A stretch of DNA of 64,000 nt. It comes from Saccoglossus kowalevskii. Lineage: Eukaryota > Hemichordata > Enteropneusta > Harrimaniidae. The stretch is taken from the NCBI RefSeq assembly GCF_000003605.2, contig NW_003149765.1:124955-188954 (forward strand). The letters run 5' to 3'. Position 1 is the first letter of the stretch, and every line of letters begins with the position of its first letter. This document shows, piece by piece, positions 6,393 to 60,010 of this stretch. Under the pieces are notes generated by a model. It worked only from the letters and a program-made list of their open reading frames with translations, had not been told where the DNA came from and did not search any database. A program made the position numbers and the translations under genes.

Positions 6393-9300
6393 ATGGCAGA
6401 GTCCGACGTGTGTGAGCTTTCCAAAATGACAACTAAAGAGTGGGCCTATTTCATGGACGGGGACGATGGACTAACACCCAACGAAGCGGAATTTTTAGAA
6501 ATGGTCGAAAGTGGTGATGTTGTTAAAACTAAGATGTTATTGAAGGTAAGCAGTTGTCCTAGCATATGGTTATGCTGTTACAGACCAGTCTTCTCCTCGT
6601 ACATATATCACGTGTGTATTTTATAATAAGAGCAGCAGCGAACACCTATTGTGTTATTGTTTGGTGCAAATGACCAGTTACTAAAGCATTTATATTAGGT
6701 AGTTTGCTCCAGTTGCCATACCCAACGCACTCATGCTAGCATGGTTTACTCATATAGTAATTATACAATGAGGTTTCTACAATTTCAGAATAATATTACC
6801 TATTAATATTAATATTTAGCGACTGTAATATCAGTGTCAATATTCATCTATGCTAATTCTTTAATGTGAGGTGACATTCGTGGGTAACATATTGTTAAGC
6901 TAACCTCACCCCAACACACACATAGACAACATAGCTCCAGCGGTTTTCGAAAACATAAATATTTTGATTTGACAAATTGCATAACAATAGTGTATTCTTT
7001 ACCCCTCTAAATGTATGCTAAGTGTGATCTATAATCTATAATAAAAACAAACCAGATAGAACCAATATCTAGGAAAGTTATATCGTATGTATGAACTAAA
7101 ATTCCGTATTTCACATCAGAGCCACACATACAATAATTAATTGGTTTTAGCCCAAAAGACTTTAACTGTAGTGCAATGAATATTAGTAATATTTCTTCGC
7201 GTATTTTAAATCTGTTTAACAGAATGGATTATTTGACGTCAACTGCGTTGTCATGCGGGGTATGCTACCAGTTACGGCAATCCAGCTTGCCGCTGAAAGC
7301 AACAACTTCCAGATGGTTCGATTGCTGTTGGATAGTGGTGTGAAACGTATTCCTAAACCGTCGATATGCATTGGTTAGTACATATGAAATAAAATTGTGT
7401 AAAGAGAAAATAGTCACAAACGTAAATATATAATGCATGCGTTTGTAACGTGTTGAATAAATGTCATTATTTCAGGAGAAGAACAGATTTTGGACGATGA
7501 CTTGAGTTACAGCATATTTTGTGGACTTGCTTCACCCGCATACCTAAACCTCGCTAACCGTGATCCAGTGATGGCATCGATGGATCTAGCAAACGATTTA
7601 CAGAAAGTAACAGAAGCAAAAGAATCTCAAATGACATCAGTGGTATTGAATTACATTATTACATATCCAGTATTTTTACTGCAATAAAAGTTATTACAGC
7701 AGACTTGACAGGGCACAGCGTATAATTGTAATATATGCATTTCTTTTTTTGTCTTCACTAAGGAAAGATATATTGAATTGAAAAATAAGGTACAACAGCA
7801 TACCCTAGATTTACTTGATTGCTGTGAATGTTCTGAAGAAGTGTCTACTTTGATTCTTGGATACAATTATGATGAAAATGCGGAAAGAAAACTTCTTCTG
7901 AAAGGAAAAGTGGTCACCAAAGCCATAGCAACCAAGCATAAAAAGGTGTGTAACAGAAAAACTTGTTATTATCACCCAAACACATTTAAATCATGTAAAA
8001 TTCAAACAATTTTGAAAGGTTTTTGAAACATTACACATATCTGGAAATACACCTTAGTACAGGTAATTTTTCAAAACATCACTGGAAAATGTAAGTTACT
8101 TTAGTACTTTTACCAATCACTGGTGTAGTACTATACTATATCGCGGAGATAATATAAATGAACCGCTTTTTAAAGAACTGGTGCTTAACTGTAATGATTG
8201 TCGGCATGTTCGTTATCTTATTCTGTAAGGAAAATGTTTATAAATAACATAAATGTGACATAGAACAGTTAGTGCCATTATGTAGAGCCGTTTTTATTCG
8301 TGTCGATAAGTGTAAATAATGGATAAGAACATTATAACTTAAGATATAAGTTATATAGAGCATAACAAATGTAGGGGTTGTATGTAATATCACTTAACAT
8401 TCGGATAGTTACAATACTATAAATAACCTAATTTGCTATTTTGGTATTAAAGTAATTTCTTAAGTAATAAGTGACTTTATCCAATTGACTTATTAAACTA
8501 ACCATGAGAAATGTGATACCTTTTGTGATGAACTATTAACATATTTCAGCTTTGGAACAACGATGTTAATGTGATTTTAGGGGGATTACCTAAACTATGT
8601 GTTTTCTAATACAATACGAGATAGATGAAACATCCTTTGTGTAACCCCGTTTGTAGCCTAGTGCATCAAACAATTGCAACATGCATTAAAATACCAGCAA
8701 ACTATCTGAGACTTAATGATTACAATGATCTGTTCTCTATTTCATACATAATTATGCCTAGTTATATACACATATATAAATGTTATGCAATACACATCCA
8801 CGTACGTTCTCATTTTTTGTATCAATTCAATGTTTACCTGGTCATGCATTGTACTGTACATTTTTAGTAGACTTGATGCTTGATATTTTTTTTATTTCCA
8901 GTTCATAGCACACTACAAATGTCAGAACGTGATTAGAAAGCTTTGGAACAAAGGCCAACCAGGATGGCATTGCAGGAATAGCTTTTGGTGGTGGGTTTTG
9001 TACTGCATATACTGTTTGATTGTATACGTGTTACTAATGCCGTTACTTGCCGTCATGTATATCATAGCACCTTGCTCGTCTGTGGCGAAAATTCTGGACA
9101 ACCCTAAAGCCAAATTTTTAACGCAAATGGTGGCATACTTGCAATTTGTTATTTTAGGCATCTTGCTTAACTTCGGTCCTGGTGGTATGTTTTATGCGGA
9201 TTATGCCTATGAGTATTTCTTATTTTGTCTCATAATTTATGAAATTGCGCTTATCTGGGGGGAAATTCGAGAAATGAGAATAAGCGGATTGATATGTTAC

Positions 9301-12300
9301 TTCAATTCTTTTTGGAACTACATGGATCTACTGGTACTGTTCTCGTTTCTTGCGGACTCCTCGCTTCGTATTGTTAGTTTGTTAAGTGGCGAGTACGTCA
9401 ATCCTGAGGTTAACTTATTCTGGATCACCTGGACGGCTTTAATTCTTACTGTTGCTTGTCTTCGATTCTTGAACAATTTCTACCTTTCCTTCTATCTTGG
9501 TCCCATGCTACTAATCTTCACTGCAATGACCAGTGACGTCATCAGATTTCTCATTATATTTCTATACACTGTAACGGCGTTTGCACTCGGATTCTACTAC
9601 CTGTATGATGATTTTGGTACCGACACTGTGTTTAGCGAGTGAGTATGCCCTGCTTTTCAGTAAAAATCTGTTGTTACATTCCCTGTTCATATGAAGTTTT
9701 TAGTTTGATTCAAATTTGCCTACTGACCTGGCAAATGTCATTAAATCTCAGTCATATCAGTAGGCATAATATGGTCAATGTTTATTTTTAACTATTGCTA
9801 TATTAGTAATATAGCCCCTGTTTGTGTCAAAAATTTTGAGTGTGGCAAATAACGGAAGGCACATTAATTACAACTTACACAAAAATATGATATTAATACA
9901 CTTATAAATGGGAAATAAGTAAAGCAATTCAAGCTCATACAAACATGTGATTAAATGATCAACTAGCTATTATTAATTTATGCGAATTATCAACACAATG
10001 CAATACTGATATATTTATTGGAGATACACATTGTTACGCTTTACTGAATGAAGTTCGTAAGTGAGATTTAAATGATGTGTTCCGAGAAAAAAGGCGCCTT
10101 GAATTCAATAATGTAAAACGGTAACACTGCGAGGGGATTCTAACCAGATCAGAGATGTATATGGTAGTTTATACATAGGGCCATGCAAGTCTGTCATATA
10201 GGCAAGAATAACTTACTAGTCTGGTCCATCTTTTATTTAAAAACGTTCTGTGAGCATTTCATGTTTGCAAAAAAGTGTTATAGGGGTTATTTACGGTTGC
10301 TTTGGTGTTATGCCCCTATTTTAAAATGATTTGTTTTACCAAGCATGATCCCAAATTGTTAAAACCAACATGGCCGCCATGTTTCACATATTTCACATAA
10401 TTGACAAATAAAAATGGTACTACATTTGTGACCAAAGAAGCCACATACTAATATTGTGTCATTTAAGTTTATAAAACATTGTCCTCTATCTTTAATATAT
10501 TCTCCAGAATGGCCGTCATATTTAAATAAAAAAATTATACTGTAGCATATTTTGAATAGTAAATATACTTATATATGTGTTATCAAATATTCCCTAATGA
10601 CGTTGCATTAGTTTTGTGCACAAAATTTTAGGATGACGCCACTACATGTGTATTACAAGAATCATAGTAAGATTCGAAAAAAGAGTGTCGTATATATGCA
10701 CTGAATTTTGTAGCACTGTTGTTTTCTTTCATAACCATTATTGTGCTGGTGTCTACCCAACGTTGTCCAACCCAACTAAGGAATGTAAACAATATATGCA
10801 TGAACAAATGCAAATGTTACGTGCTGAAGTGATTGGAAGTCTTTCCACATGCAATAAATTGCTTCTAGTAGATGCAAAATGTCACAACTTTCGCTGAGAG
10901 AATTTGCTTGTTTGGTGATCGATGGTCGAGCATTGGCAATGCCCTTTGAACACGTTTCTTAGGAAATATGCTGAGAATAAGAATTTGCCTACACGTATGC
11001 GACAGATAGCACACTTTATCAAGGACGGCACATGAACGAAACGAACACATGGGATTTGACCCATATGGTGAATAATAACAAAATAAGACTGATTTTTCAC
11101 CAGATAATTGGTTCAATTTTATTTTTTTAGATAAAAAAGCCAATGTAGCAAAGTATTACGTCACTTGTGCCTAAAATTTGGCTGTAGGATTCAAGGATGT
11201 ATCTGAGAACAACTGTTCTGATCAAGAGATAAACACTGGGCTCTTAAATGAAATGCCGTGTGTGCTGTGTACTGGACCAGTGAAAATATGGCTGAAATAT
11301 ATGAAGCATTTATTTGCTTTCGTCAAACGTTTGTGGTCATTAGAGATGGGATAGTGGTCTCCGATGTAGCACATGTTAAGCATTCCAATTTGTGGTTGGA
11401 TATACCGGAAAATTACATACCTCTTGATTGATACTGTTTTCATTGATTTAGGTTGGCAAGTTGGTCAGGGTAAAGCGTTGTAGATGTAGATGTAAATGCC
11501 GTTTGTACCATGCATTATGACAAAAAAAGCTTTATATAAATTGACTGGCTATCCTTCCAGATTTTCTGATTTGACAGGAGGCTTGAACGAGAGCTTACTG
11601 ATGCTTACTTACTTGTGGTTTTGCCAGTACTAAAACCTTTCAGCATTTTTCTTTGAAGACTACCAAGAATTTTCAAAACTATACTGACCATTTCCATTAA
11701 CATCAATAACGATGTGGGATATGTTTATGTACATAGTTCCACAGTCAGCTGTCGCATAATTGATAATAAAATAAAAGCGATATTTACTCTATGGGGCCGC
11801 CACCTCGAACACGGCATGAAACTAATTAAAGAAACAAGTTGTGAAACGCGTTTTTCAGATTCCTACAAACCGAGGAAAAAATACCACTCTTTTTCACAGC
11901 AATAGCGCACCATTTAGATAATATAAAGCTAACCACTAACAAAATTTGGCCGAATTCGTCGTTTTCGTGTGGAAAAATCCCTTGTTTTACAAAGTTGCTT
12001 TCCCAGTATATAACAATAAGAACTTTGTCTTCCCCAGCTTAGTTATATTGTGAACATACTAAATACATACTCTGACATCGACGGGTACCAGTTATATTAA
12101 AATTATTGAGAATATTTTTTCAACTTAATGATTCTGAATCACTTAACCTGCACACATGTACACACACACTCTGACGCGTAAACTTGAAAACTTGGTTTGA
12201 CATTTTTTCTGACATGACTTTGGAACATCGCGGCGGGTGTGGCATGCCAGCAGCAGATGCTTACCCTTCACGTGCACCTGGTCTGACTCCCTTGTGGGGG

Positions 12301-15300
12301 TTTGTGATGTTCCGCTTCCATCGATTTTGTCGGTATATTTTTTCTAGACTACTGTTGTGTGGAGAATGGCTTATTGGTACTACTATACTTAACTATATGT
12401 TTTCCCCGCTAACAGATTTACCTCGTCTTTTGTTGTTTTGGTCACAACGATCTTTGGAGGCAACCCAATCGAAAGTTTGAAAGCGAAGGGTATGGTTTTC
12501 AACTTAACTGGTGCCGGATATGGCGTAGTTGATGCAAGACCTATGTACAAAACAATGGGGTTTATACTATATGCATCGTTTGGTACTATATGTATGCTCG
12601 TATTGCTAAATATCTGCATTGCCATGATGTCTGACACTTATGCAAAGATGAAGGTGAGTGGACCATTCGTCATATAAAAAGCGAATATCACTCTGTTAAT
12701 TGAGAAAAGACTTCAATTCAAACACAATTCAGCAAAGCCATTGACAGAAAATGACCTTTGTGTTCTATTGTAAAGACAATTTCTTATGAATGCATTTATT
12801 TGATGCTAAAGGTTACTTATCAGTTTGCCTGGAATTGCATGTTTTCAATTTAATTTGGGATCATTTTTTCATTTTATATAAAATTTTTGAAAGTTTGTCA
12901 TTACAACGTTATAAAATACAATATGATCAGGTCAAGGGACGAGCGAAGTCTTTATTATAATTACATGTTAAATATTGTATATTATCTGTATCTGTTTATA
13001 AACTTGTTTATACATTTTATCAGACAACTGCTGTTTAGATCTATGGTTTGTGTTTATTTTCCATGTCATGAAAGATATTGTAAATTTAAGGACTAATTAA
13101 TTCATGACAATGTGCTGTAAACGTAAATTAGGTTGTCTTCAAACACCGTTGCTCTACAAGTCGGTTAAAAACATTCAATCAGAAATTGGAACACACGTTT
13201 CATCCTATAGTAAAAACTAAAACCAATCATGCATGTACCAACGACTCCCATGTCTACCGACTTGACACAAGATCTACTGAATGCACACAAGGTAAATAAG
13301 ACAACGACAAATTATTGCACAGTATTGATGATATTAGCCATTATTCAACGACGTACCCAGAAGTTTTCAGGGAATGAACAAATTGGAAATAGCAAGGTCA
13401 CCTTCAGCTTGCCCAATCAAAATTTCGTTAAAACACACACTTCATTTTTCCCTCGGGCTTTAAAGTTTCGGAACAAACAATACACGGTCAGTAGATATTA
13501 ATACAATTTTTACACTATTGATTACTGCTAAATCGCGCAACTTTTTTTATTGAATAATAAATTGAAAACAATCATCGTACACCTTCAAACATAAAGATCA
13601 ATTGAAAGCAACTGTGTCGTTCGTCCGTAGATACGACGAGGACCATCTAGTCATCCTGGGGTCGAGTTGAACTTGCTTTGTGGGTTTGCAGGTGGCTGGT
13701 GAGGCCAATCTGCTTGCGAAAAAGTCTCTGACGGTGCGGACAGGGGATTGTAGCAGCTGCTACTGGGTTGTTGACCCTGTTCTTCCTGGCCTGTCTGTGG
13801 TCTTGAGCAGCAGCACTCCTGTTGGCCTGTTTGCTCCCTTGTGAACAGCTAATCGACATGTTCCCCTGTCTTGGGCCAACTGCTCGCATTTGTCGTGACT
13901 GATGTTAAAAGCCTTCAGTGCGGCTTTTTAATGTGTCCCTGAAACGCTTCTTCTGGCCACCATGAAAGCGTTTTCCTTGCTGTAGCTCGCTGTAGATCGT
14001 CTGGGATCCTGTCCTGCCACTTTATGCCAAGAAGTTTACTGAGGTGGGTGGTGTGAAAGTGGTTTAACTTTCTGGCATGATGCTGATAGACTTTCCTGAC
14101 TTCACAGCTGTAGAGTAACGTAGTGAGCTCGACACACCTTGATCTTTGTCTCTGTGGTGATTCCTTTAGTGTAGCCTGCTAAAAGTAGCACTCACTTTAG
14201 CGAGTCTGGTGTTGACTTCGCGTGCTTGTCGCCACAGGGCTTTGGGGTGAGATGATAGATGACTTGTGTGTTGAGACTTTGTTTAAAGCAAGGAAAAGTT
14301 GCACACTAACGATCTCACTCTCTCTTCCAAAACCATCAAAATCCAGTGGCAAGACAAATCCAGTAGCTGGAGTTGCACACGCCGTCTGCGAAACCAATTA
14401 CATTCCCTTTGTTAGTATGTACGCAAAGGCTCGTGAGACTATACAGGAGTCTAGAGCATCCGAAACGCGCTCAGCTAAGGTATTCATTCTCAACAACTAA
14501 ATTATGAGGTCGCCATATATTGATTTTCATTCACAGCACACACTCCTTCAAAATGTCATACATCATATAAATTCCGTTGCAACAACAAGGTCGCAATTCG
14601 TATACACCAGGAATTCAACTAATACTGAAAACAAAGATAACATTCATTGACTCATTTTAAACTCGTGTTGTGGTAAAAGTTGTGTAAAAGAGCACTGTAA
14701 ATTCCATCAAGGGAAGGTTTATGCATTGAGAATTTTTTCCCAAATGTGGAATATTTGTTTGAAACTGCTGCAGTTAAAAAAATACTGTAAGTGTTGGAAG
14801 TCAAATCGAAAGATTTGTCAGACAGAGTTTCTACGACTGACATTACAACAACAGAAACTGAATAAGATACATTACTAAATTAACAGGGAGTGGGTAAAAT
14901 ACAATAGACTCGCTAATTATCAAATGCTTCATAATAAATATGCATATAACAGACGATATATCTACAAACGTCACAATACATCAATCACTATCTACACCGC
15001 AGAGAGACCTTCACACATTAATAATACGAACCCCCACCTGAATGACGCAAAAGATATTATAGTAATAAAAACACTATTCAGGTATATATGGATTCCACAG
15101 CCCTGTACAATGGAATCGAGCATGAATTTGCATGAACAAAAATATGTTGAAAAGAGGGCACTATCCCATCACTATGTTGCTGGGAACGTACTACATTTTA
15201 ATGATAATGTTAATTTAAAAGTTTTATAGAAATTTGACCATGTTCAAAAAAATAATATGACATAAGTACATATCTTTATTATCACGGAATCCCAAGTCTT

Positions 15301-16825
15301 ATAGAATTCCACACACACTGCAACTCGATTAACCCCAATCACCACATGCATTTAGATCTCTTCCATGGAGTAACACTCTACAATATTGACGTAGAGTTGC
15401 TCAGATGATGGAGAGCAAAGAATCCACCTCATCATGGATGATACAATCAATCCATAATATCTTGAGCCACTCTAAAAAAGCACACTCGAATTACAAGACT
15501 AAAATCCATACAGTGTCCAATTCACCACTTTTGACTGAATAATTGTAACCAAGCCAAACATATTTGAAAAACTGCACCACGATGACCATTGAATTATTAC
15601 CAGCTTATCTACCTGGACAGCGGAAGAGTGAGTAGCGAAACAATAAACTCTTCTGAACTGAAAAAATGTTGGTCTTCACCACAAATACATCGCCTCGCCA
15701 GATATGGATTCCACAGCCCTGTACACTGCAATCGAGCACGAATTTGCATGAAAAAAAAATATGATGAGAAGAGGGCACTATCCCATCACCTGATCTCGCC
15801 CAGGAAATGCTAGGCTGAGGTGTCTTGGCTCATACTTACCACAATACTATAATAAGGTAACATGTATAAAAACATTAGTACAGGATAATAACTTTAGCTC
15901 CTACACTATGGGTACTTTATTTGAACAATTTCAATATTTAAAATAACGCAATCCAGTTACAACACATTCCAGCTCAGTTCAAACTTCCCACGATACTTTC
16001 AGACCATAAAATAACAAATTAATTTTTTTTTCGACACAATCGTCTGCAATTATAGATAATATGTAAACATAAACAAGTCTACCATATTGGGTGAGTTTGT
16101 TGCACGTTTTCTAATATATGCATATTGTCAATTTTGTAGAACAGTATCGAGATTGAGTATACGTTTATGCAGACAAAAATGTGGCTGAGTTATGTCGACG
16201 CCCCCGTATTGCCAGCTCCGTATAATATCATCCCATCAGTTTCTTGTTTGATTTCCATTGTCAAAAAGTGTGTTCGTATGTGTCGGCCTAGCTCAAATAC
16301 AGATGAAGACGTTGAGGTAAGACATTCGAAAAATAACGAATGAATATGGATAATACGAACATTTATCATGTGTCTAATTCTGATTTTCCTAATGTGCAGT
16401 TAACTATACCGAAGGATAACAGACGAAAAATGCAGACAAACAAAGGATTACTCTACGAGGAGGTGAGTTAGGTATTTGTTTTGACAACTGACTTACCATT
16501 CCACTATTTAGACTTCATACATTATTCAATGAAGAAAGATCACAATTTCATTTGGCTTATTATAATATATACCAAACCTCATTGCGGTAATGTTAATTAG
16601 TTATCCCGAAGCTGTTTATTTTACAGAAAAGATTGTATATATTGTATAATTATACATATTTTAATAATTATCATATTTTTTAAAATTATTTTTTAGTTGA
16701 TAAATGTTTTATGTAATCGGTATATGGTGAGGAAAGAAATCATGAACAAGGATATCATGCGGAAGTTGTATACTTCAGTTCATTCGTTGAAAGACGAAGA
16801 CAAGTCAAGGAACCAGCAAATATGA
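6393..16825 (+). CDS. TRPC-like cation channel, gene A (9 exons, about 665 aa)
   Basis: Predicted plasma-membrane cation channel of the TRPC family. Exons: 6393-6545, 7223-7373, 7476-7642, 7763-7945, 8902-9638, 12416-12653, 16140-16316, 16400-16462, 16697-16825. All have GT-AG borders and phases 0,1,0,0,2,0,0,0, and the frame closes at TGA. Residues 35-100 hold about two ankyrin repeats (LAAESNNFQMVRLLLDSGVK). The TRP_2 domain follows (SPAYLNLANRDPVMASMDLA, then [13 protein letters not shown]). Exon 5 (from FIAHYKCQ, residue 219) carries S1 to S5 and exon 6 the pore and S6 (VTTIFGGNP, then [15 protein letters not shown]). Exon 7 has the TRP-box equivalent (IEYTFMQTKMWLSY) and [10 protein letters not shown]. 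Exons 8-9 give a short basic helix. The filter has Asn where the other four genes have Asp. Introns 5 (2.8 kb) and 6 (3.5 kb) are long and hold repeats. A poly(A) signal lies 115 nt past the stop. Sister to gene C. Confidence 0.92.
9639..12415 (+). other. Gene A intron 5, no further gene seen
   Basis: A 2.8-kb intron between the S5-bearing exon and the pore/S6 exon. It starts GTGAGT and ends CTAACAG. Short open frames occur on both strands, but none resembles a known protein or has sensible splice context. No repeat family was recognised with confidence. Confidence 0.6.
13617..14235 (-). mobile_element. 5'-truncated LINE (non-LTR retrotransposon) tail in gene A intron 6
   Basis: On the - strand the three frames give fragments typical of the region after the reverse transcriptase domain of a common LINE type. 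In order these are EVNTRLAKVSATFSRL, then LYSCEV and HARKLNHFH, then LLGIKWQDRIPDD, and finally a C2H2-like tail with IGLTSHLQTHKA (about 13680-13730). Several frame changes and stops separate the pieces, so the copy is dead. The element starts abruptly near 14235, as expected of 5' truncation, and its 3' part ends around 13620. Its orientation is opposite to gene A. Clade assignment (CR1/L2/Jockey-like) was not possible by eye. Confidence 0.8.
14238..14482 (+). other. Unassigned open frame next to the LINE
   Basis: An 80-residue open stretch on the + strand with mixed composition (for example NPVAGVAHAVCETNYIPF and SMYAKARETIQESRA) ends at AAG followed by GTATTC, a possible donor. It lies in gene A intron 6 directly beside the LINE truncation point. 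It does not resemble any TRPC exon, and I do not recognise it. It could be a captured exon fragment or chance. A similar uncertain stretch, MHVPTTPMSTDLTQDLLNA, ends at AAG|GTAAAT at 13291. Confidence 0.2.
15084..15176 (+). repeat. Direct repeat copy 1 in gene A intron 6
   Basis: About 90 bp: TATGGATTCCACAGCCCTGT, then AATCGAGC.TGAATTTGCATG and AGAGGGCACTATCCCATCAC. It recurs 620 bp downstream at 15705-15789 with a few differences. No ends or target duplications were recognised. Confidence 0.8.
15705..15789 (+). repeat. Direct repeat copy 2 in gene A intron 6
   Basis: Second copy of the block at 15084-15176, in the same orientation. It may reflect a local segmental duplication within the 3.5-kb intron. 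Confidence 0.8.
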
Positions 16826-19152: not shown

Positions 19153-19260
19153 GCCCGCATATTTTAAAACATGTCTGAAAATAATACAGGTGCAATATAT
19201 AGCAATGGGATAAAAATAATAAACCCATCATTGTCTGAAAGAATGGCTCATTCAAACCAA
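19153..19260 (+). pseudogene. Orphan A-type 5' flank copy
   Basis: Reads CCCGCATATTTTAAAACATG, AATAATACAGGTGCAATATA, GGGATAAAAATAATAAACCC and AATGGCTCATTCAAAC. It aligns with the 5' flank of the relict at 2944-3050 and of gene A at 6048-6130. Nothing resembling exon 1 or later exons follows before the Tc1-like element at 19451. It is probably the leftover of a third + strand copy, or else a dispersed repeat present in all three places. Confidence 0.55.
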
Positions 19261-24707: not shown

Positions 24708-27700
24708 TTATGCATTTGCTGTTGTATCATCTGTTTTTACGTCTATATGAGCATCATCAGTGGATTCACTGCACTCTATGTCTTCCTCCTTTATAAACAT
24801 TTTCATCAGTAAATAACGAACTAGAAGAACATTAACGAGCTACAAAATAAAACAGTTAGAAAGATTCAATTGCAAAAAATATCAATGAAATAAAAGTTTA
24901 CACAGGTTTATTAATTATAGTATTTAGAAACGAAATTCCGACTGCAGGCTTTAAGATATTGTCATGACATTTTACCTGCTTATAATGTAGCACTCGACTT
25001 TCTTCACTTGTGGACAATGCAAGCTGTGGAGTGTAATGTAGGTTGTAAATACGTAATGATGTATTGTTTATGCATCAGATGTTAAATGATTGCAAATCAT
25101 GTAGAATTAGTAATCAAGGTTAAGAAATAATGTAAGATATCATGTACGATAATCAACTTGAGTTGTTAGTATAAATAGTATATTATTATTATCTTATACA
25201 TATATGTCATTACATCAGATAAATTGTGAGTAATTGTCTTGAATACCATAATAATAAAACCAATTCACCTCGATTTCGTCATTTGTCACCACTTCTGTTG
25301 AAGTCGTTTCTTTCTTACTACACTTACAGTATCGCTTGCAAGACGAAACGGACGGTAAAATATTGTATGGCGCTGGAAGTACGGAGGCACGGCTGTAATT
25401 CATCCAAATTTTCGTGCGAAGGAACTTCCACTCAGTGTCGATATTTTCCTAAAAACGGTATAACAAATAATATTACTCATCGCACTATTTGCAAGATTCT
25501 TGCAAATACAATAATCGAATAACAATAATTAATATGTAAAATTTAAAGATACTCACTCTCAGCTGTGAGTACGTGTCAGACATCATGGCAATACATATAT
25601 TAACTAGAACCAACATACATAGAGTACCAAACATTGTAAAAAGTACGAAACCCATTCCTTTGTACATAGGAGAAGCATAAAAACCAGTGATGTTGTAACT
25701 CGGCATTGCACCAAAGTATAACTCATTTCCTTTAAGTTCTTCAGTTGGATCACCGCCAAAAATTGTAATGACCAAGGAAGCTATAGATGATTCCAATCTG
25801 CAAAATAACAGTATTTGACAGTAAATTCATTTCAACACGTTGCTGTTGGAAACATTGAGCTCAATTAATCGACATGTCACGCTTATCTGAAGTAAAGAAA
25901 TTGTGCTTCTTAATCTACGACCCATTTTATTTCACCAGTGACACGTCTATAAATGTTTTCAGTATTTTAGTATCCGAGAATAATCGTTCGAAAATCAACT
26001 GGACATGCATTGCACAGAAATAAACGATATACGAACGTTTTCCTGTGCGTTATAAAGTAGTATACAAAGCGTATACCTGCACAACCAATCAGAAAACACC
26101 ATTCCAGCGTAGAACGTCATTGTATAATCAAACATACGTATATATATATACTCATATTAGCTGCTGACATAGAAAGTAAAGTAAGCAAACAACACCGAAA
26201 AAACGGCAAGGTAAATACTACGCCAAATCAAAGTAAACACATACTACATGCGTGACTCGAAACGGCGCTCGCGTAGGCACCTAATGACGTGACGCTAGGC
26301 GATTGGGTGCCGTACGCGAGCGCTGGTTTGAGTTAGTAGTATTCACCGTGCCGTTTATTCTGTATATATACTCACTCGTTAAACACATTTCCTTCAACAC
26401 CTTCATACAGGTAGTAGAACCCAAATGCGAACGATAAAACAACGTATACGAAGATCACGAGAAATTTTATTACGTCCCCTTTCATTGCAGTAAACAACAG
26501 TAACATGGAACCGAGGTAATTGGTAAGGTAGACATGTTCCAAGAATCGCAGACAAGCTAGTGTCAGAGTGAGAGCTGTCCAAGTGATCCAAAAGACTTGT
26601 AGTGCATCATCAATTTCAATTTCTTCCAAACTGTTTAGTAGCCTCAGTGTAATGTCCCAACCAAACGATAAAAATATCATCAGATCTATATAATTCCAAA
26701 AGTTTGTAACATACATTTTAAAACCATTGCTTTTCATTTCCACTACCTCTGCCCAAATAAATGCCATGTCGTATATTAAAAGAAACATGAGTAGAAACAT
26801 TAGCACGCCAGTTAATGGATAATTTGGGTTTGGGGCTAAGTGCACGTTCAACGTAATAACAAGACAAAGAAATAGTAAGTATGACGTCATTTTGGTGAAA
26901 TATTTAGCTTTGGGATTATCAATAATTTTCGCCAATGTGCAGTCTGGTGCTATGATGTACGCTAACGATAACACGGGCAGCAGCACCACATACATTAAAA
27001 GACAATAAGCAGCGTAGAGTAGCGACCACGAAAAGCTGTCTGCTTGTTTTTCTCTCCAAGATGGTTGACCGTAATTCCATATTTTCTTCATAATCTTCTG
27101 GGTTTTGTAATGCGCAACGAACTGTGGAACACATAATAATTGGTTGAGTTAGGGATGGCGTTGGGGTAATCACGTAGTGCAATTAAATGTATTATTTTAA
27201 ATATTAATATTATATTAATTATAATTTTATATTAAATTGCTTCAAAAGTAATTAATTGGCCAATGAATGTAAATGACCTTTTCGAATTACGTACTATATC
27301 AGAAAATAAAAATGCATTCATTAATTTTCAAGATGATTATCCTCTTTTACAACAACCTCACAAGCGTTTTGTTAGACTAACCTCTTTATTGTAGCACTCT
27401 ATTGCTCTATTGATAATGCTCCCTGTGTCTGGAAGTGTAGTTTCCATGGCATCAATATCATTTCCAGTCAAAAGCATGCAGACTTCTTTCATGTCTTCGC
27501 AGCACTCCAGCCATTCCAAAGAATACTGGAAAACCTTTTCCCTCATCTCCTCATAGTGTTCCTATTATATGGCGAGGAATTGTGTTAGATATTGGCTATG
27601 TGCTGCAGATTGGTCATATAATCACTGATGCAAATATATATTTTTACAAATATTATCCTAGAGTTATGTCACCAATTAATAGCTTTGTTTCATTTATTCA

Positions 27701-30917: not shown

Positions 30918-30980
30918 GACAAATACAAATCGACGCGATTTAAAAATAAATCTACATTTATCACGGTCATAACATGACTT

Positions 30981-41084: not shown

Positions 41085-41237
41085 ATGGCGGAGCCAGACT
41101 TACGGGATTTTTGTCAAATGACAACTAAAGAGAGGTCTTATTTCATGGACGGTAACAATGGTCTGACACCCGACGAAGCTGAATTCATATTCAAAGTTGA
41201 AAGCGATGATGTTGTAAAAAATAAAGAGTTATTGAAG
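41085..41237 (+). pseudogene. Orphan exon 1 of an A/C-type TRPC-like gene
   Basis: A full 153-nt open exon, 51 codons, the same length as gene A exon 1. It starts MAEPDLRDFCQMTTKERSYF, continues DGNNGLTPDEAEFIFKVESD and ends DVVKNKELLK. It is followed by GCAAGA, so the donor is GC instead of GT. The conserved Trp of KEW is Arg. No matching exon 2-9 was found on the + strand through 45 kb, so it is most likely a leftover of a deleted or partial duplicate. The frame is still open, which suggests a recent loss. Confidence 0.85.
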
Positions 41238-45527: not shown

Positions 45528-48500
45528 TCATGCTGTAATGTCTTCTGTTTTCACAACTTTATCATTTATAAATCTGCTGCACTTTATGTCTTTTTCCCGT
45601 ATGACTTTTTTCTTCAGTAAATAACGAGCAAGAAGAACCTTAATGAGCTACAGAATGTGAGAGCACGGTTATGAAGAAAGTTAGTTGGCTATAATAAACT
45701 GCATTTATATAAACGATGTGAAAGTTCATATAACTTTCGTATCTATAAACAATATTTCAAAAAGTTTGAAGTGTTCGTTACGATATCCTACCTGCTTATA
45801 TTTCAAAATCTGGTTCTCTGTAGTCCTGAACAATGTAAACTGTAGGATGTAATGATGTAATTGTTAGTCAGTTACTACCGAATTTGTTCAATGTTTATGT
45901 TTGATACAATTCAGATGCCAGATTGACATGATGGTGAACGAATGTAGACTATGTCGATGACTGAAAGGCATCCTCGGTCTTTGATTCATTTCGGGACGTA
46001 TTTCAAATGCAAATAATATATTGTCATTAACGAATACACGTATACGAGTATGCTATTAAATCAAAAGAATAAGTGAAGCCCCGAGTAGTAGCATAAATAA
46101 GTAGTCACCTCGATGTCTGTATTCGTCGCCAGCTCAGTTGAAGTCACCCCTTTAGTACAACACCTGAATAGTCGTTTAAATGATTTGGCAGATGGTATAA
46201 TATTGTATGGTGCTGGTAGTACTGGAGCACAGATGTACTTCATCCACATCTTTGTGCGAAGAAATTTCCACTCTATATCGATATTTTCCTAAACAGAATA
46301 TTAACATTTTATTAACAGGTTACTGGCAATAATCCTGCCAATAAAATAGCGATATGCTATTAAATATATTATTTAATTATACTCACTCTCATCCGTGTGT
46401 ACGTGTCAGACATCATAGCAATACATATATTAAGCAGCATCAACATACATAGAGTTCCAAACATGGTAAACAGCAAAACACCCGTCCATTTGAACATAAA
46501 ATTAGCATAAGCCGGGAGGTTGTAATCAGGAGTGGCATCAATGTTTAGTTCGTCAGTTGGATCACCGCCAAATATTGTAAGGATCAAAGACGTTATTGAT
46601 GATTCTAAACTTTAAAAACGAAAGTACTTTGTGTTATTTCTGTAAATCATATTAGTTTAATACAGGATTGCTGTGACTGATTTATTAAAATAATCGTCTT
46701 ACAGTGGTTGCAGCTTTTATCTGTTATTTTTCTGTTTTTATTATGTCTAAAAGCTTAATATACAATTTGTCAATTTAAAAAACATTTTGGCCAATCAATC
46801 AAATTATGAATTATTGAATAAAATAAAATCAACAATTATCATTATCAATTTTATTTTCAATTTTCAATGTATACTTCTATACCGCATACTACTTTGAGGT
46901 CACATTTATTTATTATGCGTTTATTGATGGAATTGTTTCAATTTGCTACAAATATGTAATAATTGGTTGTATTATATCGACGTCGGTAAGATCACGACTG
47001 ATCCAACTCATGTATACACCTATTTGTCTATATCTTGGCTTCATTCAAATATTAGTAAATTTTGTTTTTGAATGAAATAACAAACAGATAATTCATCATT
47101 CATATATATCATCACAGACTGCATGTTATACTAAAAACATGTAAATCTATGATTAATTTATCAGATTAAACCACAAATGTTACGTTCCCATAATGGCCAT
47201 TTTGTGTACGAAATTAGAACAATGTATATTTGCTTATGCATAACCGAGACCCAACTATTGCTGGATTGTTGTTTTAGCATGTTTAACTGTTAAAATAACC
47301 ACCAGCCGAAACTAATGTGTGTGATTATGCGTTATATGATTTGTGAAACAAAATGACCTGCATGAAGGCCTCATATATGTAAATGGAATCCACATCAACC
47401 CATGACATTTATGAATTTTTAGCAGAAAGCAGCCGCTATTTTGCCATCTTGCATTGGATTATGAACCGAATATGAATAAATGTTTACCAAGACGTATGAT
47501 ATATCAGTCCGAGAGTGGCACTAGGATGGCATACAATAAAACATAATGTTGACCATTTTGAGTATAATGTACAAAAACGATTTACCCTATGTTCCTCTAT
47601 TGTCTAATGCGTGTACCGAGTATAAAATCTGTCAACAAACGACTGAGATCTTGTTTTTAAATTCTTGATTTTATGAATTAATAGTGGTCATATTGAATAT
47701 TGAACACAAAACAATTGCACGTGCATATGTATCCGCAGATGTAGTATGAATGTGCGTAAATAGAACGTAAGGATACAGACAGACCAGTGAATGAACAAAG
47801 GGCTAATTAATTTATAAGGACCCAACAAGATATTTGTTTCTGGTCAAAAATGTGATATGAATTTTTACTGATTCACTTTTTTCTTGCATGGGTATGATAC
47901 ACTAGTGTGAATACATGTAATTTATATGTAATTAATGACCAAATTAGCAGATACAATTGCATAACATCAATAATTTAAAGTTTTTGTTTGAGTAACCTGC
48001 AATCTGATTACAACCAAATATCGTTTCTATATATATAGTTATTTTTTCTCTATTTATAAATAATGTGGTTTTAATTGCTTATGTATTGGTGGCCCTAACA
48101 GTTGAGGCGACCATTCTCCCAGTTACCATATTGACAATTCTCTCAAAGATTTCACGAAATCTGTCAATAGTTTACACATTTTGGTTTATACACCTGAAGT
48201 CCCAGACAAAGCAATAGAAAAATGAAATTTGCATGTCGACTCCGACACAATCATAACATTCTTAGTAAAGGAATAATTTATCCCATAGTTGGATCATAAA
48301 AAAGAGCATTTTGCCTGTCACCTTATCCTCGATCTTGCGTACTACGTGTTGCATTTTTTTCACTACACTCTACAGTTTTGTGGAAAAAACTCAAAAATCG
48401 ATCGTACCATCATCAGCTATATTGCAGTTGGTAAGTGAAATGGGAATGGAATATAGATTAAAGTAGTTATAATTTAATTTTTACATGCAGCTGATAACAC

Positions 48501-51500
48501 TATAAGCCTTGCCATGAGTCACATATGTTTCATTGCTCACATTGTTTTGTAGTCTAGTTAAAAAAATACCATCATTCAGAATGTCAAAAGATATTTCGCA
48601 ATTCTTTTTTAAAATTACGTGACCAAGGTTCATTAGGTTGAGTTAATATACGCATGCAATTAATATCGCTTACAAAAATAACACCATTAAGCTTTGCGAG
48701 AAATATATAACTTACATCGACATAAATCGTTCTTGGTAGGTAAACAAAGACTGCAGTTGTAGTAATTACTAAATCATGTAACGCCAGTATTCATTGTTCG
48801 TTCATATCAATAATGTGTTACATGATTTGACCCCGATTATTTATACAAATGTTTTGAGTGGATAATATAATCACAATTTTTAAACATAACCATGTGAGTA
48901 TACACCCTAATTTTTTTGTTGTATCGTTCATTACTGGAAAGACGTAGGTCATATTATGTTAAGAAAAGATAAATAAGAAAATCATAAAATATCTAAATAA
49001 TATAAATATGTGTGTTGTAATCAAAGTCACTAATAAAACCAAATACTTCTTGGCAGTAGGCAAGAAAAGTTGCAAATGACATTATTGACAACCTTGTTCA
49101 CTAAACATAGTGTTGATCACCTTGGCGCAATGCTCAACAATCGCCACTAGTCTACCTATTTATAGAAATGAGTTGTTCATTCCAAACAGCAATAATTCTA
49201 AAATAGGTATACCCTTTCGACAAATGCAAAGCTTTGTTGTGTTTTATGTTTCTTGTTTATGTGTTATGTGTTACTGTCCGAAATCGTATGTTGAAAATAA
49301 TTATGTTCACATAAAATATTTAATGAGACAAAAAATCGTGGCGTTATGTCGAGAGTGAAACACAAATTTGACATTCATGAACGTATGATGTTTCTGACTA
49401 CGTAAACAATCATATTAACCAGACTCTCGTTGATAACAAATCGGCGTGGTTTAAACAGAATAGTTTCCTTTTAGAAAAAAAATGTTTTGCTTTGATCGCT
49501 TTAATATTAAACATATGCGTCGGTCTGAATGATTTCTGTGCCGTTATAAAATCCAAAACCGTGTTAAGCTTCCCAGTCTGGCAATTGCAATTGTTTGTTC
49601 GCCCGCGCTTTTTTGCGCCTAAAAAACTCGCTCGAACCAGTATATCCGCGTACCCGAAACCATTGCCGTATTACGGAAACAGACATTCGTACTACAAGTA
49701 TAGAGATTTTCGACATTTGCAAAACGCCTAATAGAATTATTGTCACGACCAAATATTGTGCAAAATCGGGCGCCAAACTCTTATGTCAACTGTCCTTCTC
49801 TGTTTCGAGGATGCATTACACTCATGAATTCGCGATGCATACCACAATAAAAATGTACTGTATATACTTACAGGTTGAATGCATTGTCTGGAACACCTTC
49901 ATACAGATAATAGAACCCAATTGCAAACGCTAACACAACATACACGAAGGTCACGAGAAATTTTATAACGTCATCTTTCATTGCAGTGAACAATAGGAGC
50001 ACGGAACCAAGGTAATTTGTAAGGTAGATGTGTTCTAAGAAGCGTAGACAAGCTAGAGTCAGCGCCAGTGCTGTTGAATTGATCCAAAACACTTGCAGAG
50101 CATCTTCGACGTCAAGTACACTGTTCATAATCCATAATAAAATGTCTATTCCAAATGACATAAAAACTATTATATCAAGATGATTCCATAAGTTCATTAC
50201 ATACTTGTTGAATCCTTCAGTCATTAGCTCTACGACCTCTGCCCAAATATACGCAACGTCGTATATTAATAGAAATACGAGTAGAATTTTCACCTCATAA
50301 TTTAATTGGACGTTTGGATCTGTTTTGACATCTAAGATTATAATGAGCACGAGAAAGAGTAAATATGACGTCATTTTCGTGAAATATTTGGCTTTCGGAT
50401 TATCGATTATTTTTGCTACAGTGCAGTCTGGTGCTATGATATAAATAATTGCTAACACAGGTAGCAAAGCTACATACATTAACACACAGTACGCGACATA
50501 TAGTAACCACCAGCAGTTGTTAGTATGTTTCTCCTTCCACGATGGTTGACCAAATTTCCAGATTTTCTTCATAATCTTCTGGGTTTTGTAATGTGCAACG
50601 AACTGTAGAACACATAGTAAGTGGTGAGTGAGGAATGGGTGATATTACACTAACTAAAAAAGTAATTGAATAAATAAACGCTCTAGTAATTTATACTAGG
50701 ATACTATATTGTTTTGGGAATTACATACTACAATCATAAAAGGAAGGCAACCAATGCAAACAATGATCTATTCAGATTAAGTTCGATGCTAATTCCAATT
50801 TTAGATTTCAATATTGTTTTTAATATTTTACCTCTTTATGACAGCTCTCTATGGCTTTACTAATAATAGCTTCTTTATCTGGAAGTGTAATTGCCAAAAC
50901 ACCAATATCCTTTCCAGTCAGAAGAGTGTAGACTTCTTTCATATCTTCGCAACAGTCAAGCAAATCCAATGAATATTGGAAAGCTTTTTTTCTTACCTTC
51001 TCATAGTTTTCCTGTTTTGTTGTATAAATTATAATGTGCATAGTTTGGAATGATTTGAAAATGACAAAAAAATTGTAATTGTTGTACAATTCACAATTGA
51101 TATTCAATTCTGACGTATGTCACGCCATGGACATGTAATCGCTGTTGTAAATATTTTAATGACTTATTGAATTGTTAAATAACAAATACCCACTGTCATA
51201 ACTAAATTAACTAGCTTTGTTTGTGTTATTTGATTTGCATGTAATTAAAATCTTACGTCTGTCACGCCTTTAATATCTTTTGCAAGATCAAAACAAGTCA
51301 TTAGTGGGTCACTGTTGGCTGCACTCAGGTAAGCAGGTGATGTTAGAGCTTTATATGTTTCGAACATTTTATCATAGTCCAATATGTTTCTTTGCTCTAC
51401 AAAAGAGTAATTCATTATGTTTATGGAATATTAGGCACGTCCATTGCCATTAGACATGTATCTTTCAGTGAATGACATTCGTCTACAGCCATATAACTAT

Positions 51501-52007
51501 AGTTTGTGTCCACTTACTCTTGAACTTGGATGGTCTCGTGATTGGCTTAGCTCCTTTGTTTAGAAGGAGATTGATCATGTGATAATCGTTATTTTTTGCC
51601 GCTATTTGCATTGCCGTTATTGGTTGTTTTTTCCGTCGACCTACGCAGTTGATGTTGACCTCGTCATTCTGTAAGTATTAGCAAAATAGAATGGTGCAAA
51701 ATTACCCTCAATGTCAATGGAAATGTCCGACTAGTCAGTCTCGTTCATCATCATTAGGTTAAAATGGTATACAATACGTATTATTTCCCATCAATCAGAT
51801 TCACATCATCGTGTAACAAAACAGTAAGTATGTGTAAATATGCACAGTATGTGTATTTACCTCCAGGAATAATGCAACTGCATCTAGATCTCCGCGTTGA
51901 ACGGCTGAAATAAATTCTGTTTCATTTTTTGTTAATGCCTTGTTAGTTCTGTCTTGCATGAAATAGTTCCATTCTGCTCTGGTCAACTCATAACTTATTG
52001 TAGCCAT
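45528..52007 (-). CDS. TRPC-like cation channel, gene D (9 exons, about 639 aa)
   Basis: Predicted TRPC-family membrane cation channel of the B/D/E subfamily. Exons in reading order: 51861-52007, 51518-51668, 51257-51396, 50832-51011, 49872-50602, 46387-46609, 46109-46288, 45792-45839, 45528-45647. Frame closes at TGA. Start [16 protein letters not shown]; two ankyrin repeats ([20 protein letters not shown]); TRP_2 ([33 protein letters not shown]). S1-S5 begin [15 protein letters not shown]. Pore and S6: [29 protein letters not shown], without the outer-loop glycosylation sequon of A-C. TRP box [11 protein letters not shown], then [10 protein letters not shown]. Tail [16 protein letters not shown], very basic. 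Oddities: FWINSTAL replaces FWITWTAL before S4, and TCFDLA replaces TSMDLA in TRP_2. Intron 5 is 3.3 kb. Its exon 6 acceptor (TTTTTAAAG) has a short pyrimidine tract, so that junction is the least sure. Confidence 0.9.
46610..49871 (-). other. Gene D intron 5
   Basis: A 3.26-kb intron, by far the longest in gene D. Genes B and E have 0.5-kb introns at the same place, so this one has grown by insertion. Sequence is AT-rich except for a less AT-rich patch near 49560-49760. No recognised element or gene. Confidence 0.55.
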
Positions 52008-56441: not shown

Positions 56442-59400
56442 TCATGCTGTATCTCCTGCTGTCATATCTGTATCATCAGTAGCTTGACTGCACTCTATAT
56501 CTTCCTCCTTTATAATCTCTTTCATCAGTAAATAACGAACTAGAAGAACATTAATGAGCTACAAAACAGAACAGTTATACAAATGTTTAGTTAACGAAAA
56601 TTTGCATTCAAATAAAAGTCTCGTATGTTTGATATTATCTAATTAACATACACCTTTAAGCGACATCCTACCTGCTCGTAATGAAGAACCTGTTTCTTAT
56701 CTTCTTTCAAGGACAATGCGAGCTGTGAAGTATAATGCAAATTATGCAGTCAAGTGTTACATAATATTGTTATTACTTATGCAACATGTGTCAGATTTCA
56801 GATTGCCATGAAAGCGAAAGCATGTAGAACCAAAAGGCATTCTGGAAATTTAAATATCAGCTTTTCCATGTATAGTATTATACAAAACGAAAATCACCTC
56901 CATTTCATCATTTGTCTCCACCTCAGCTGATGTCGTCTTTTTGATACAGCTCATACAGAGTCGTTTAAATATTGAAACGTTTGGTACAATGTTGTAGGGT
57001 GCTGGTAGTACTGGCGCACTAATGTAATTCATCCAAATCTTTGCACGGAGAAATTTCCACTCAGTGTCGATATTTTCCTGAAATCAATATTACAACAATA
57101 TATATGCAGCAAACCTTTGCATTATTCTTGTAAATAAAATTATGGCATATTAACAATTAATAGGTAAAATTTAAAGATACTCACTCTCAACTGTGTGTAC
57201 GTGTCAGACATCATAGCAATACATATATTAAGTAGCACCAACATACATAGAGTACCAAACATGGTAAAGAGTAAGAAACCCATATATCTGTACATAGGAT
57301 ATGCATAATAACCCTTGGTATTGTGATCGGGCGTGGCACCAAAGTTCAGTTCTTCACTTGGATCACCGCCAAATATTGTCAGTATCAAAGAAGTTATTGA
57401 CGATTCTAAGCTGCAAAAAAAATAATGTATATTAATTGTGTATTAAGGAGCTTTAATTGACCCAAAGGCCTAATTCTACGGCGGTAAATAATGCTGAAAT
57501 AATCGACATAATTATTAATATTTTGGTTTGTTGTTTAAAGAGAGACTTCGTAAATTATGTGTATATCACAAATGTGGATATCACCAAAATCTAACCCTTT
57601 TAAACAAAATTAAATCAACACGGTCAATTATCACTTTTGGGATTTCCAACATTAACTCGCAAAAACAATATTCAATAAACATATTTTAATAGTATTAGTA
57701 TTAGAATGTAATTGTAAAAAAAAGCAAAATGTAATCACTTGTTCAGAAACACATATAACTTTACTAAGATATACGTCACAGAAAAACGACATACGTAAAC
57801 GTGGGTCAGGGTTATTGGTTATTATACAAATCTTATATAAGAACAGTAGGTTTTGTGAGGAACCGTCTTGCACTACATTTGTTACTGTAATGTATCGCTA
57901 TTATAACATAATTTATTACAGTACATATACTTACTTGTTAAAAACACTGTCTTTAACACCTTCATACAGGTAGTAGAACCCAAATGCGAACGCTAACACA
58001 ACATATATGAAGATTACCAGAAATCTGGTAACGTCCCCTTTCAGCTCAGTGAACAAGAGGAGCAGGTGGCCAAGGTAGTTGGTCAGGTACATATGTTCAA
58101 AAAAGCGTAAACAAGCTAGAGTCAGAATCAGAGCTGTCCAAGTAAACCAAAACACTTGTAGTGTGTCATCGATTTCGTCCAAACAGTTCAATAACCTCAG
58201 TGAAATGTCCGATCCAAATGACACGAAAATCAACAAGTCAATATAATTCCAATAGTTCGTGAAATATTTTTTGAATCCAATACTCTTAAGCTCCACGATC
58301 TCTGCCCAAATATATGCAGTGTCGTATATTAGTAGAAACATTAGAAGACCCACTAACATATCACTTAATGGGTCATTTGGGTTTGGGGCAATTTGGACAT
58401 TTAACACGATAATGAGTACCAGGAAAAGTAAGTATGATGTCATTTTGGTGAAATATTTGGCTTTTGGATTATCGAGTATTTTTGCCACAGTGCAGTCTGG
58501 TGATATGATATAGGCAGTTGCTAACACAGGCAGTAGAACTACATACATTAATAGGCAGTACGCAACATAGAGAAACCACCAACTCCAACTGTCAGAATGC
58601 TCTTTCCACAATGGCTGTCTATGCCTCCAGATTGTTTTCATAATCTTCTGGGTTTTGTAATGTGCGATGAACTGTAGAACAAAGGATATTTTATGTGTCT
58701 GACAATCTGAATAATCTAAAAAAAATAATTAAACCATTCAGCAGTTTATGAAAGGAAATGGTTATAAGTGTTCTACTGGAATTACGTACAGATTGCCTGG
58801 ACTATGAATAATGATTCATTGATATGTTCGATGCTTATCGTCATTTTACACTACATATCAGAAGCGTAATATTACGTTCACCTCTTTATGGCAGCTCTCT
58901 ATGGCTTTACTGATAATGGTATTTGTGTCTGGAAGTGTAGTTTCCATGCAATCAGTATCTCTCCCAGTCATAAGCGTATAGACTTCGTTCATGTCTTCAC
59001 AGCATTCAAGCCATTCCATAGAATACTTGTAAACTTTTTTCCTCATCTCCTCATAGTTTTCCTGTCATTGTAAGTAGTTTTGTGAGGTAATGCAATAACT
59101 GCCTGACTTGGCGTAACTATTCAAAGCTGAGAATGTATTATGATAAATATTAATAGACGATATGTGGTCTATCTGTAATGTAATCGCTGTCCCTTATGCA
59201 ATAGTTAAATATTAAATACCTATGGTCACTACTAAAAAGCATTGTGTGTGTTATTCAATTTCGATGTAATTAAAATCTTACGTCTGTCACGCCCTTAATA
59301 TCATTGACAAGATCCATAGAAGTCGCAAGTGGATCACTGTTAGCTGCACTCAGGTAGGCAGGTGATGTTAGAGCTTCATATGTTTCGAGCATATTATCAT

Positions 59401-60010
59401 GGCCTAATATGCTCCTTTGTTCTACGAAGAAGTAATTAATTTATATTAATGAAATATAGAATTAGTGAAGCACGTCAAAGTTATGTTAGTTATATTATAC
59501 ACATTTAGTTTGTTTTGTGAATATAATTTAAGTTTGCGTTCACTTACTTTGAAAGGTCGATGGTCTTGTGATTGTCCTAGCTCCGTTGCTTAGTAGCAGA
59601 TTGATCATGTGATAATCGTCATTTTTTGCCGCTAATTGCAATGCCGTTATTGGTAATTTTTTTCGCCGGCCTGTACAGTTAACATTTATTGCGCCACTCT
59701 GTATGGTAGTAAACACAGATTATTGAGAGAACTACTGTGCTACATCACTTCGACACACAATTTGAATAGGTATGCAATGAGTAGTGCTTATTTGTCAATC
59801 AAGTTACTAACAACATTGTGTAACGAAGCAGTAATTATGAAATATAAGCACATATGTACTTACCTCTAAGAGTAATGCAACTGCATCTATATCTCTGCAT
59901 TCAACGGCTGAAATAAATTCTGTTTCATTCTTCGTTAATACATCGTTGGTTTTGGCCTGCATGAAATAGTTCCATTCTCTTCTTGTCAACTGGCAACCTT
60001 TTTTGGCCAT
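56442..60010 (-). CDS. TRPC-like cation channel, gene E (9 exons, about 642 aa)
   Basis: Predicted TRPC-family membrane cation channel of the B/D/E subfamily and the most compact gene. Exons in reading order: 59864-60010, 59548-59698, 59282-59421, 58882-59061, 57935-58671, 57185-57410, 56898-57077, 56672-56722, 56442-56558. GT-AG borders, phases as in the others, frame closes at TGA. Start MAKKGCQLTRREWNYF; two ankyrin repeats ([20 protein letters not shown]); TRP_2 ([33 protein letters not shown]). S1-S5 begin [15 protein letters not shown]. Pore and S6: [32 protein letters not shown] box TEWKFLRAKIW, then [10 protein letters not shown]. Tail LINVLLVRYLLMKEIIKEED, acidic end. The S4-S5 linker reads FTELKGDVTRF where the others have (F/N)AM(K/T)xDVI(K/R)F. 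Exon 8 is one codon longer than in B and D. Closest to gene B by intron 6 start and tail sequence. Confidence 0.92.

What the first reader, a model, noticed from the sequence alone, without database searches (positions are those of the whole stretch)
6393..60010. Five-gene tandem cluster of TRPC-like channels with identical exon architecture
All five genes have nine coding exons with the same phases and nearly the same exon lengths. Exon 2 is always 151 nt, exon 4 180-189, exon 5 731-746, exon 7 177-180. This shows a single ancestor and local duplication. TRPC genes are normally dispersed and few per genome, so a lineage-specific cluster suggests a new sensory or signalling repertoire.
Basis: partly seen in the sequence, partly recalled or inferred. 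Interest (0 to 1): 0.85.

Follow-up and report, generated by a model that had tools for sequence, protein, structure and literature searches.

The report
Large array of remodelled TRPC-like channels
The window holds five intact ion-channel genes from a larger side-by-side array of at least fifteen copies, very probably in an acorn worm, whose proteins descend from the TRPC family but lack several of its standard parts, so they look like a new branch of calcium-entry channels rather than ordinary TRPCs.

Summary
Five complete genes (A 6393-16825 +; B 28502-24708, C 38072-30981, D 52007-45528, E 60010-56442, all -) each have nine coding exons and the same phases, with 40 of 40 introns GT-AG. The window cuts a larger array. 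The same contig carries 15 exon-5 copies over 222 kb and 14 pore exons; three long runs of N lie among them, so 15 is a minimum. A-E alone are not a clade (AU p 0.0004), because outside copies nest among them. The array plus one gene on C4568 holds together (92/94) and is split from vertebrate TRPC4/5 and four same-genome TRPCs at 100/99. The proteins are TRPC by descent but lack the LFW pore motif, have an FGGD or FGGN-type filter, about two of four ankyrin repeats, Cys at a lower-gate Leu, and no coiled coil. The mitochondrial code and inverted COX1 match Saccoglossus kowalevskii. Best reading: Ca2+-permeable TRPC-derived channel subunits multiplied by local duplication. Function is inferred; no expression or structure data were available.

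The parts
6393..16825 (+). Gene A, 665 aa. Exons 6393-6545, 7223-7373, 7476-7642, 7763-7945, 8902-9638, 12416-12653, 16140-16316, 16400-16462, 16697-16825. Filter FGGN, TRP box EYTFMQ.
24708..28502 (-). Gene B, 654 aa. Exons 28502-28356, 28117-27967, 27866-27727, 27561-27382, 27121-26376, 25797-25557, 25448-25269, 25023-24976, 24839-24708. Filter FGGD, TRP box EWKFLR.
30981..38072 (-). Gene C, 669 aa. Exons 38072-37917, 37519-37369, 37270-37104, 36780-36592, 34649-33913, 32723-32495, 31803-31627, 31519-31457, 31121-30981. Filter FGGD, TRP box EYRFMR.
45528..52007 (-). Gene D, 639 aa. Exons 52007-51861, 51668-51518, 51396-51257, 51011-50832, 50602-49872, 46609-46387, 46288-46109, 45839-45792, 45647-45528. 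Filter FGGD, TRP box EWKFLR.
56442..60010 (-). Gene E, 642 aa. Exons 60010-59864, 59698-59548, 59421-59282, 59061-58882, 58671-57935, 57410-57185, 57077-56898, 56722-56672, 56558-56442. Filter FGGD, TRP box EWKFLR.
3051..3152 (+). Possible relic of an exon 1 of the A/C type (weak, E 0.003).
5421..5577 (-). Relic of an exon 3 of the A/C type, with a stop (E 4e-9).
41085..41237 (+). Orphan exon 1 of the A/C type, open, with no further exon matches beside it (E 1e-15).

Best explanation
The window is one end of a tandem array of at least 15 gene copies descended from one TRPC-type channel gene, in a hemichordate (Saccoglossus kowalevskii or a close relative). SHOWN by sequence: intact genes with a common exon plan, purifying selection, clade membership, inverted and dead copies, and a remodelled protein. 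INFERRED: the array grew by local duplication such as unequal crossing over; each protein is a six-helix subunit that assembles as a tetramer and passes cations, including Ca2+, downstream of receptor/phospholipase C signalling, as TRPCs do. The Asp in the filter of 11 of 14 copies should favour Ca2+ entry, and the Asn of A, I and J should weaken it. Multiplication supplies subunits that differ in filter, lower gate and TRP box, hence separate or combinable currents.
For: 15 exon-5 copies on C3976 and one on C4568, and 14 plus C4568 and C346 by an independent exon-6 search. Ion_trans over its cut-off in 5 of 5 window proteins; the TRPC-specific TRP_2 matched in 5 of 5, over its cut-off in B, C, D only. 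Best solved relatives are TRPC4 and TRPC5 (8e-85) against TRPM2 (6e-18) and NompC (2.5e-15). dN/dS 0.19-0.33. Array plus C4568 holds together 92/94 and is split from canonical TRPCs 100/99. Filter, gate and TRP-box residues per copy. Filter residues set Ca2+ permeation in Drosophila TRP (Asp621) and TRPC5 (N584) (PMC7565274, passages).
Against: No expression, structure or physiology: structure prediction was off. All 14 copies lack the LFW motif, whose replacement by AAA makes a TRPC subunit dominant negative (PMC7565274, passage), and the coiled coil that helps the tetramer, so some copies may not conduct alone. The filter Asp sits one place earlier than the acid of C2917 (FGLVD), so its role is by analogy. 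K is broken and M has an in-frame stop.
Confidence: 0.65

Rival explanations
1. The array encodes modulatory subunits that do not conduct alone but join canonical TRPC subunits in the same cell and change or silence their current.
For: LFW absent in 14 of 14 copies while LFW-to-AAA subunits are dominant negative (PMC7565274, passage). Canonical TRPCs with LFW (C1005, C3897, C1053) or LIW (C2917) are present in the genome. About half the ankyrin domain and the coiled coil are missing.
Against: The whole pore region, S6 and TRP box are kept under purifying selection (dN/dS 0.19-0.29 over S5-S6). The filter is not degraded but consistently Gly-Asp or Gly-Asn. Without a coiled coil, joining other subunits is also harder.
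Confidence: 0.2
2. The array is a separate TRP subfamily, sister to all TRPCs rather than derived from within them.
For: Long branch of 1.46 to canonical TRPCs, loss of LFW, S1-S5 in one exon instead of several.
Against: TRP_2 and the TRP box are present and TRPC4/5 are by far the best solved matches. The tree has no outgroup, so it cannot decide.
Confidence: 0.3
3. The cluster is just the five window genes, an ordinary small tandem family.
For: A-E are the only complete members inside the window.
Against: Ten more exon-5 copies on the same contig; A-E alone as a clade rejected, p 0.0004.
Confidence: 0.02
4. The copies are assembly duplicates of haplotypes, or mostly pseudogenes.
For: Long runs of N in the scaffold. 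K is broken, M has a stop, and relics exist.
Against: dS is 0.60-0.80 for the closest pairs among the window genes, far above allelic difference. Five of five window genes are intact, dN/dS is 0.19-0.33 and introns are nearly unalignable.
Confidence: 0.03

Closest known systems
Vertebrate TRPC4/TRPC5
   Same: Ion_trans, TRP_2 segment, TRP box, N-I-A of the gate, start of the C-terminal connecting helix; best solved matches.
   Different: Array lacks LFW, has filter FGGD/FGGN, lacks a counterpart of TRPC4 residues about 92-142 (ankyrin), has a short S5-filter and long filter-S6 linker, Cys for L620, and no coiled coil.
Canonical TRPCs of the same genome (C2917, C1005, C3897, C1053)
   Same: Same superfamily and TRPC-type exons.
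   Different: They keep LFW (LIW in C2917), Leu at the gate, and split S1-S5 over several exons; the array has S1-S5 in one exon.
Oyster TRP expansions (Crassostrea gigas: TRPC3 x7, TRPM2 x21)
   Same: Lineage-specific TRP multiplication, with tandem duplication reported (PMC8004665, passages).
   Different: Assigned there to ordinary subfamilies; no loss of TRPC hallmarks was seen in the passages read. Sequences were not compared here.
Drosophila TRP
   Same: Acid in the filter; Asp621 sets Ca2+ selectivity (PMC7565274, passage).
   Different: Its sequence was not compared here. By the FGLVD of C2917 the array acid is one place earlier.

Membership tests
Group I TRP superfamily | 12-residue fingerprint; 95% of TRPs have at least nine (PMC9242649, section 6 read) | tested here: met
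   A-E each have 9 of 12 identical. Over the 14 array rows the range is 8 (H, I) to 10 (L, N, O). Lost are F576 (14 of 14), L620 (14 of 14: Cys in 13, Phe in J), W639 (7 of 14) and, in B, D, E, F367 to Tyr.
TRPC (canonical) | TRP_2 domain and Ion_trans | tested here: met
   Ion_trans over cut-off in 5 of 5; TRP_2 matched in 5 of 5 over part of the model, above cut-off in B, C, D, slightly below in A and E.
TRPC (canonical) | TRP box EWKFAR (PMC7565274, passage) | tested here: inconclusive
   EWKFLR in B, D, E; EYTFMQ in A, EYRFMR in C.
TRPC (canonical) | LFW motif in the pore helix, said to be in all TRPC channels (PMC7565274, passage) | tested here: not met
   0 of 14 array copies have F or W at these places. 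Controls: LFW in C1005, C3897, C1053, C4614, TRPC4, TRPC5; LIW in C2917; LLW in C4610.
TRPC (canonical) | Four ankyrin repeats (PMC7565274, passage) | tested here: not met
   The profile aligns to TRPC4 25-91 and again from 143, so about 92-142 has no counterpart; the junction is inside exon 2, so no exon was missed. Control C2917 matches the trp profile from position 1 (1-110 and 117-289).
TRPC (canonical) | Connecting helix, CIRB site and coiled coil | tested here: not met
   Alignment ends at TRPC4 728 and TRPC5 727; only about 20 profile positions follow and each gene ends in a stop. The start of the helix is kept. Calmodulin binding is not testable here.
TRPC (canonical) | Groups with known TRPCs in a rooted tree | tested here: inconclusive
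   Unrooted tree: split 100/99 from TRPC4/5 and four same-genome TRPCs; no TRPN or TRPM outgroup.
TRPC (canonical) | Receptor-operated cation current | not testable with these tools
   No physiology available.
Tandem gene array | Neighbouring copies of one family on one contig | tested here: met
   15 exon-5 and 14 exon-6 copies on C3976. The 14 array rows alone as a clade are not rejected (p 0.256), but the best tree puts C4568 among them.

The most novel reading that the evidence does not exclude
The array is a separate TRPC-derived channel subfamily with its own pore: LFW-less pore helix, Gly-Asp or Gly-Asn filter, short S5-filter and long filter-S6 linker, Cys lower gate and a halved ankyrin domain. 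In this acorn-worm lineage a TRPC was turned into a multigene, Ca2+-preferring repertoire of the kind usual for chemoreceptors, with Asp/Asn filter switches tuning Ca2+ entry copy by copy.
Probability: 0.35. Interest if true: 0.7.

Novelty: new variant of a known kind. Interest (0 to 1): 0.52.

Why it matters
A recent review suggests that large sensory channels such as TRPs might be less prone to tandem duplication (PMC11526382, passage). A run of at least 15 copies argues that a TRPC can multiply like a chemoreceptor family. The copies differ naturally at the filter, lower gate and TRP helix, so they are a set of evolved variants for asking what the LFW motif, the ankyrin repeats and the coiled coil are really needed for. 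If the organism is an acorn worm, the case also bears on how TRPC diversity changed in deuterostomes outside the vertebrates.

Tried and rejected
GC donors for exon 3 of A and C were dropped when divergent copies showed nine more conserved codons ending at GT. A five-gene clade was rejected by AU test. Haplotype duplicates were rejected on dS. An ordinary-TRPC identity was rejected on LFW, ankyrin repeats and coiled coil. Rfam and tRNA scans of the window found nothing and tandem repeats found six short AT-rich or unremarkable rows. NCBIfam gave only TIGR00870, matched by 5 of 5; the one score printed, for E, is below the curated cut-off. Structure prediction was never possible, so no fold search was made. 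A rooted tree was not made. Genome searches with PF08344 and with exon 5 of A were asked, not answered and not pursued. In one search the automatic linker count picked a wrong FG for B, E and J, and H's S5-filter figure includes read-through residues, so these are left out of the linker comparison; the S5-filter figures of C1005, C3897 and C1053 are also unusable because an exon is missing from the joined rows. K was left out of the 24-row tree as broken; C1005, C3897, C1053, C4614 and C4610 entered with missing pieces.

Literature: searches listed no paper whose title or abstract start describes this array. Eight papers hold both 'Saccoglossus kowalevskii' and 'TRPC' (listing only; two of them also appeared in other listings). 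Most subscription papers are not in that library. PMC13402157 (one passage) did not help.

Full report
What is there. The window is eukaryotic DNA at 32-39% G+C. Comparing its reading frames with each other and placing splice sites (corrected in 98) gives five complete genes: A (6393-16825, +) and B, C, D, E (28502-24708, 38072-30981, 52007-45528, 60010-56442, all -). Each has nine coding exons with phases 0,1,0,0,2,0,0,0; 40 of 40 introns are GT-AG; none has an internal stop. One detail was missing: exon 3 is 167 nt in A and C but 140 nt in B, D and E, which use a donor nine codons upstream.

Not chance, not decay. Within the two groups (A, C; B, D, E) proteins are 66-73% identical, between them 43-47%. 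dN/dS is 0.26 (A-C), 0.22 (B-D), 0.19 (B-E) and 0.33 (D-E), at dS 0.60-0.80; between the groups dS is saturated. Introns under 400 nt align from 2 points worse to 10 points better than shuffled ones. So the duplications are old and the proteins are under purifying selection.

The array is larger than the window. The window is positions 124,955-188,954 of contig C3976 (1.46 Mb) in a 572-Mb genome. A search of the whole genome with exon 5 of E finds 15 copies on that contig, all between 133,856 and 355,765, plus C4568, C346, C4614, C4610 and a weak match on C814. Exon 6 finds 14 on the contig plus C4568 and C346, then canonical C3897 and C1752. I name the outside copies F to O. In the 200 kb fetched beyond the window, exons 1 to 7 were found for F, G, H, I, L, M and N (some weakly: exon 1 of H E 0.03, of L 0.007). 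J lacks exons 1-2 beside a run of N, O lacks exon 1, and K is broken; M has one in-frame stop in exon 6. Of four runs of N of 9-25 kb in the 200 kb, three lie inside the array; they may be assembly gaps or withheld stretches, so 15 is a lower bound. Relics of further copies lie inside and outside the window. Most genes run on the minus strand; A, M and N are inverted.

Relationships. A 24-row tree of S1-S6 splits TRPC4/5 and C2917, C1005, C3897 and C1053 of the same genome from the array, C4568, C346, C4614 and C4610 at 100/99 over a branch of 1.46. The 14 array rows with C4568 hold together at 92/94, below the tool's mark for strong support; B, D, E at 100/100; A, C, F, G, I, J at 100/100. 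An earlier 21-row tree of exon 5 alone gives the array with C4568 81/90 and places the broken K with A. A-E alone as a clade is rejected (p 0.0004); B, D, E with canonical TRPCs is rejected (p 0.0027); the 14 array rows alone are not rejected (p 0.256). C346, C4614 and C4610 are long branches and their place is unsure. The tree has no outgroup, so 'inside TRPC' and 'sister to TRPC' both stand. TRP/TRPC-type exon matches lie on 19 further contigs (60 of 232 candidates scored; the weakest may not be TRPC).

The proteins. Ion_trans passes its cut-off in 5 of 5; TRP_2 is matched in part in 5 of 5, over the cut-off in B, C and D; ankyrin matches are weak, passing a cut-off in B, D and E for single models. 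The best solved relatives are TRPC4 and TRPC5. Relative to TRPC: (a) TRPC4 residues about 92-142 have no counterpart, and the junction is inside exon 2, so about two of four ankyrin repeats remain; (b) the F and W of the pore-helix LFW are absent in 14 of 14 copies; (c) the filter reads FGGD in 9, FGGN in A, I and J, FGSD in L and FTSD in O, so Asp in 11 of 14; (d) the S5-filter linker is about 18-24 residues (10 rows) against 37-41 in TRPC4, TRPC5 and C2917, and the filter-S6 stretch 47-54 (11 rows) against 38-39 in TRPC4, TRPC5 and the four canonical genes; (e) L620 of the gate is Cys in 13 of 14 and Phe in J; (f) the TRP-box Trp is Tyr in 7 of 14; (g) the chain ends soon after the start of the connecting helix. 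On the tree the filter Asn needs one change and the TRP-box Tyr two. Against a clean contrast: C2917, the closest to TRPC4/5, has LIW, C4610 has LLW, and C4614 has LFW with a short S5-filter linker. S1-S5 is one exon in the array and in C346, C4614 and C4610, whereas the four canonical genes split it.

Organism. The 17-kb mitochondrial contig C4830 reads ATA as Ile and AAA as Lys at conserved places of ND5 and ND1, and AGA as Ser in ND1 and cytochrome b. It has ND6 on the opposite strand and COX1 inverted between ND1 and COX2 (the conserved motifs are recalled, not searched). Passages of PMC2697986 and PMC3121625 give ATA=Ile for Ambulacraria, AAA=Lys for Saccoglossus, and an inversion of COX1 as one of two steps that separate S. 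kowalevskii from Balanoglossus. I take the organism to be S. kowalevskii or a close relative. Against it: I recall a larger assembly for that species.

How it most likely works. Shown: intact, constrained, multiplied TRPC-descended genes with a changed pore. Inferred: tetrameric, Ca2+-permeable, receptor-operated cation channels. The filter acid is the best candidate for a functional difference between copies, because Asp621 of Drosophila TRP and N584 of TRPC5 affect Ca2+ permeation (PMC7565274, passages). The rival, modulatory subunits, rests on the LFW loss and is not excluded.

Known or new. TRP families are known to expand with tandem duplication (oyster, PMC8004665, passages), so multiplication is not new in kind. 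New, as far as searches show, are the size of one TRPC-derived array, its place in a probable hemichordate, and the consistent loss of TRPC hallmarks.

Noticed in passing
window 20073-20633 (+): 186-aa open frame with a weak DDE_3 match (E 0.004, below cut-off), looking like a Tc1-type transposase fragment between genes A and B.
   Followed up: partly
window 61645-62152: Short frames that match each other on both strands, which suggests an inverted or repeated element.
   Followed up: no
19 contigs other than C3976 (C2917, C1005, C3160, C814, C3368, C211, C4610, C934, C3977, C1053, C1752, C3897, C1468, C3424, C3046, C3365, C4614, C1298, C1841): TRP/TRPC-type exon matches, so the canonical TRPC set of this genome also looks large.
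   Followed up: partly
L031 (C4614) and L032 (C4610): Long-branch relatives that keep LFW or LLW but have S1-S5 in one exon and a long filter-S6 stretch; possibly intermediates between canonical TRPCs and the array.
   Followed up: partly
L037, L038 (C4830): Mitochondrial contig with inverted COX1, ATA=Ile, AAA=Lys: Saccoglossus-like.
   Followed up: yes
exon 3 donors of B, D, E (27727, 51257, 59282): The three share a GTAAGA donor where A and C read GCAAAA or GCAAGA, so one donor shift probably shortened exon 3 by nine codons in their ancestor.
   Followed up: partly
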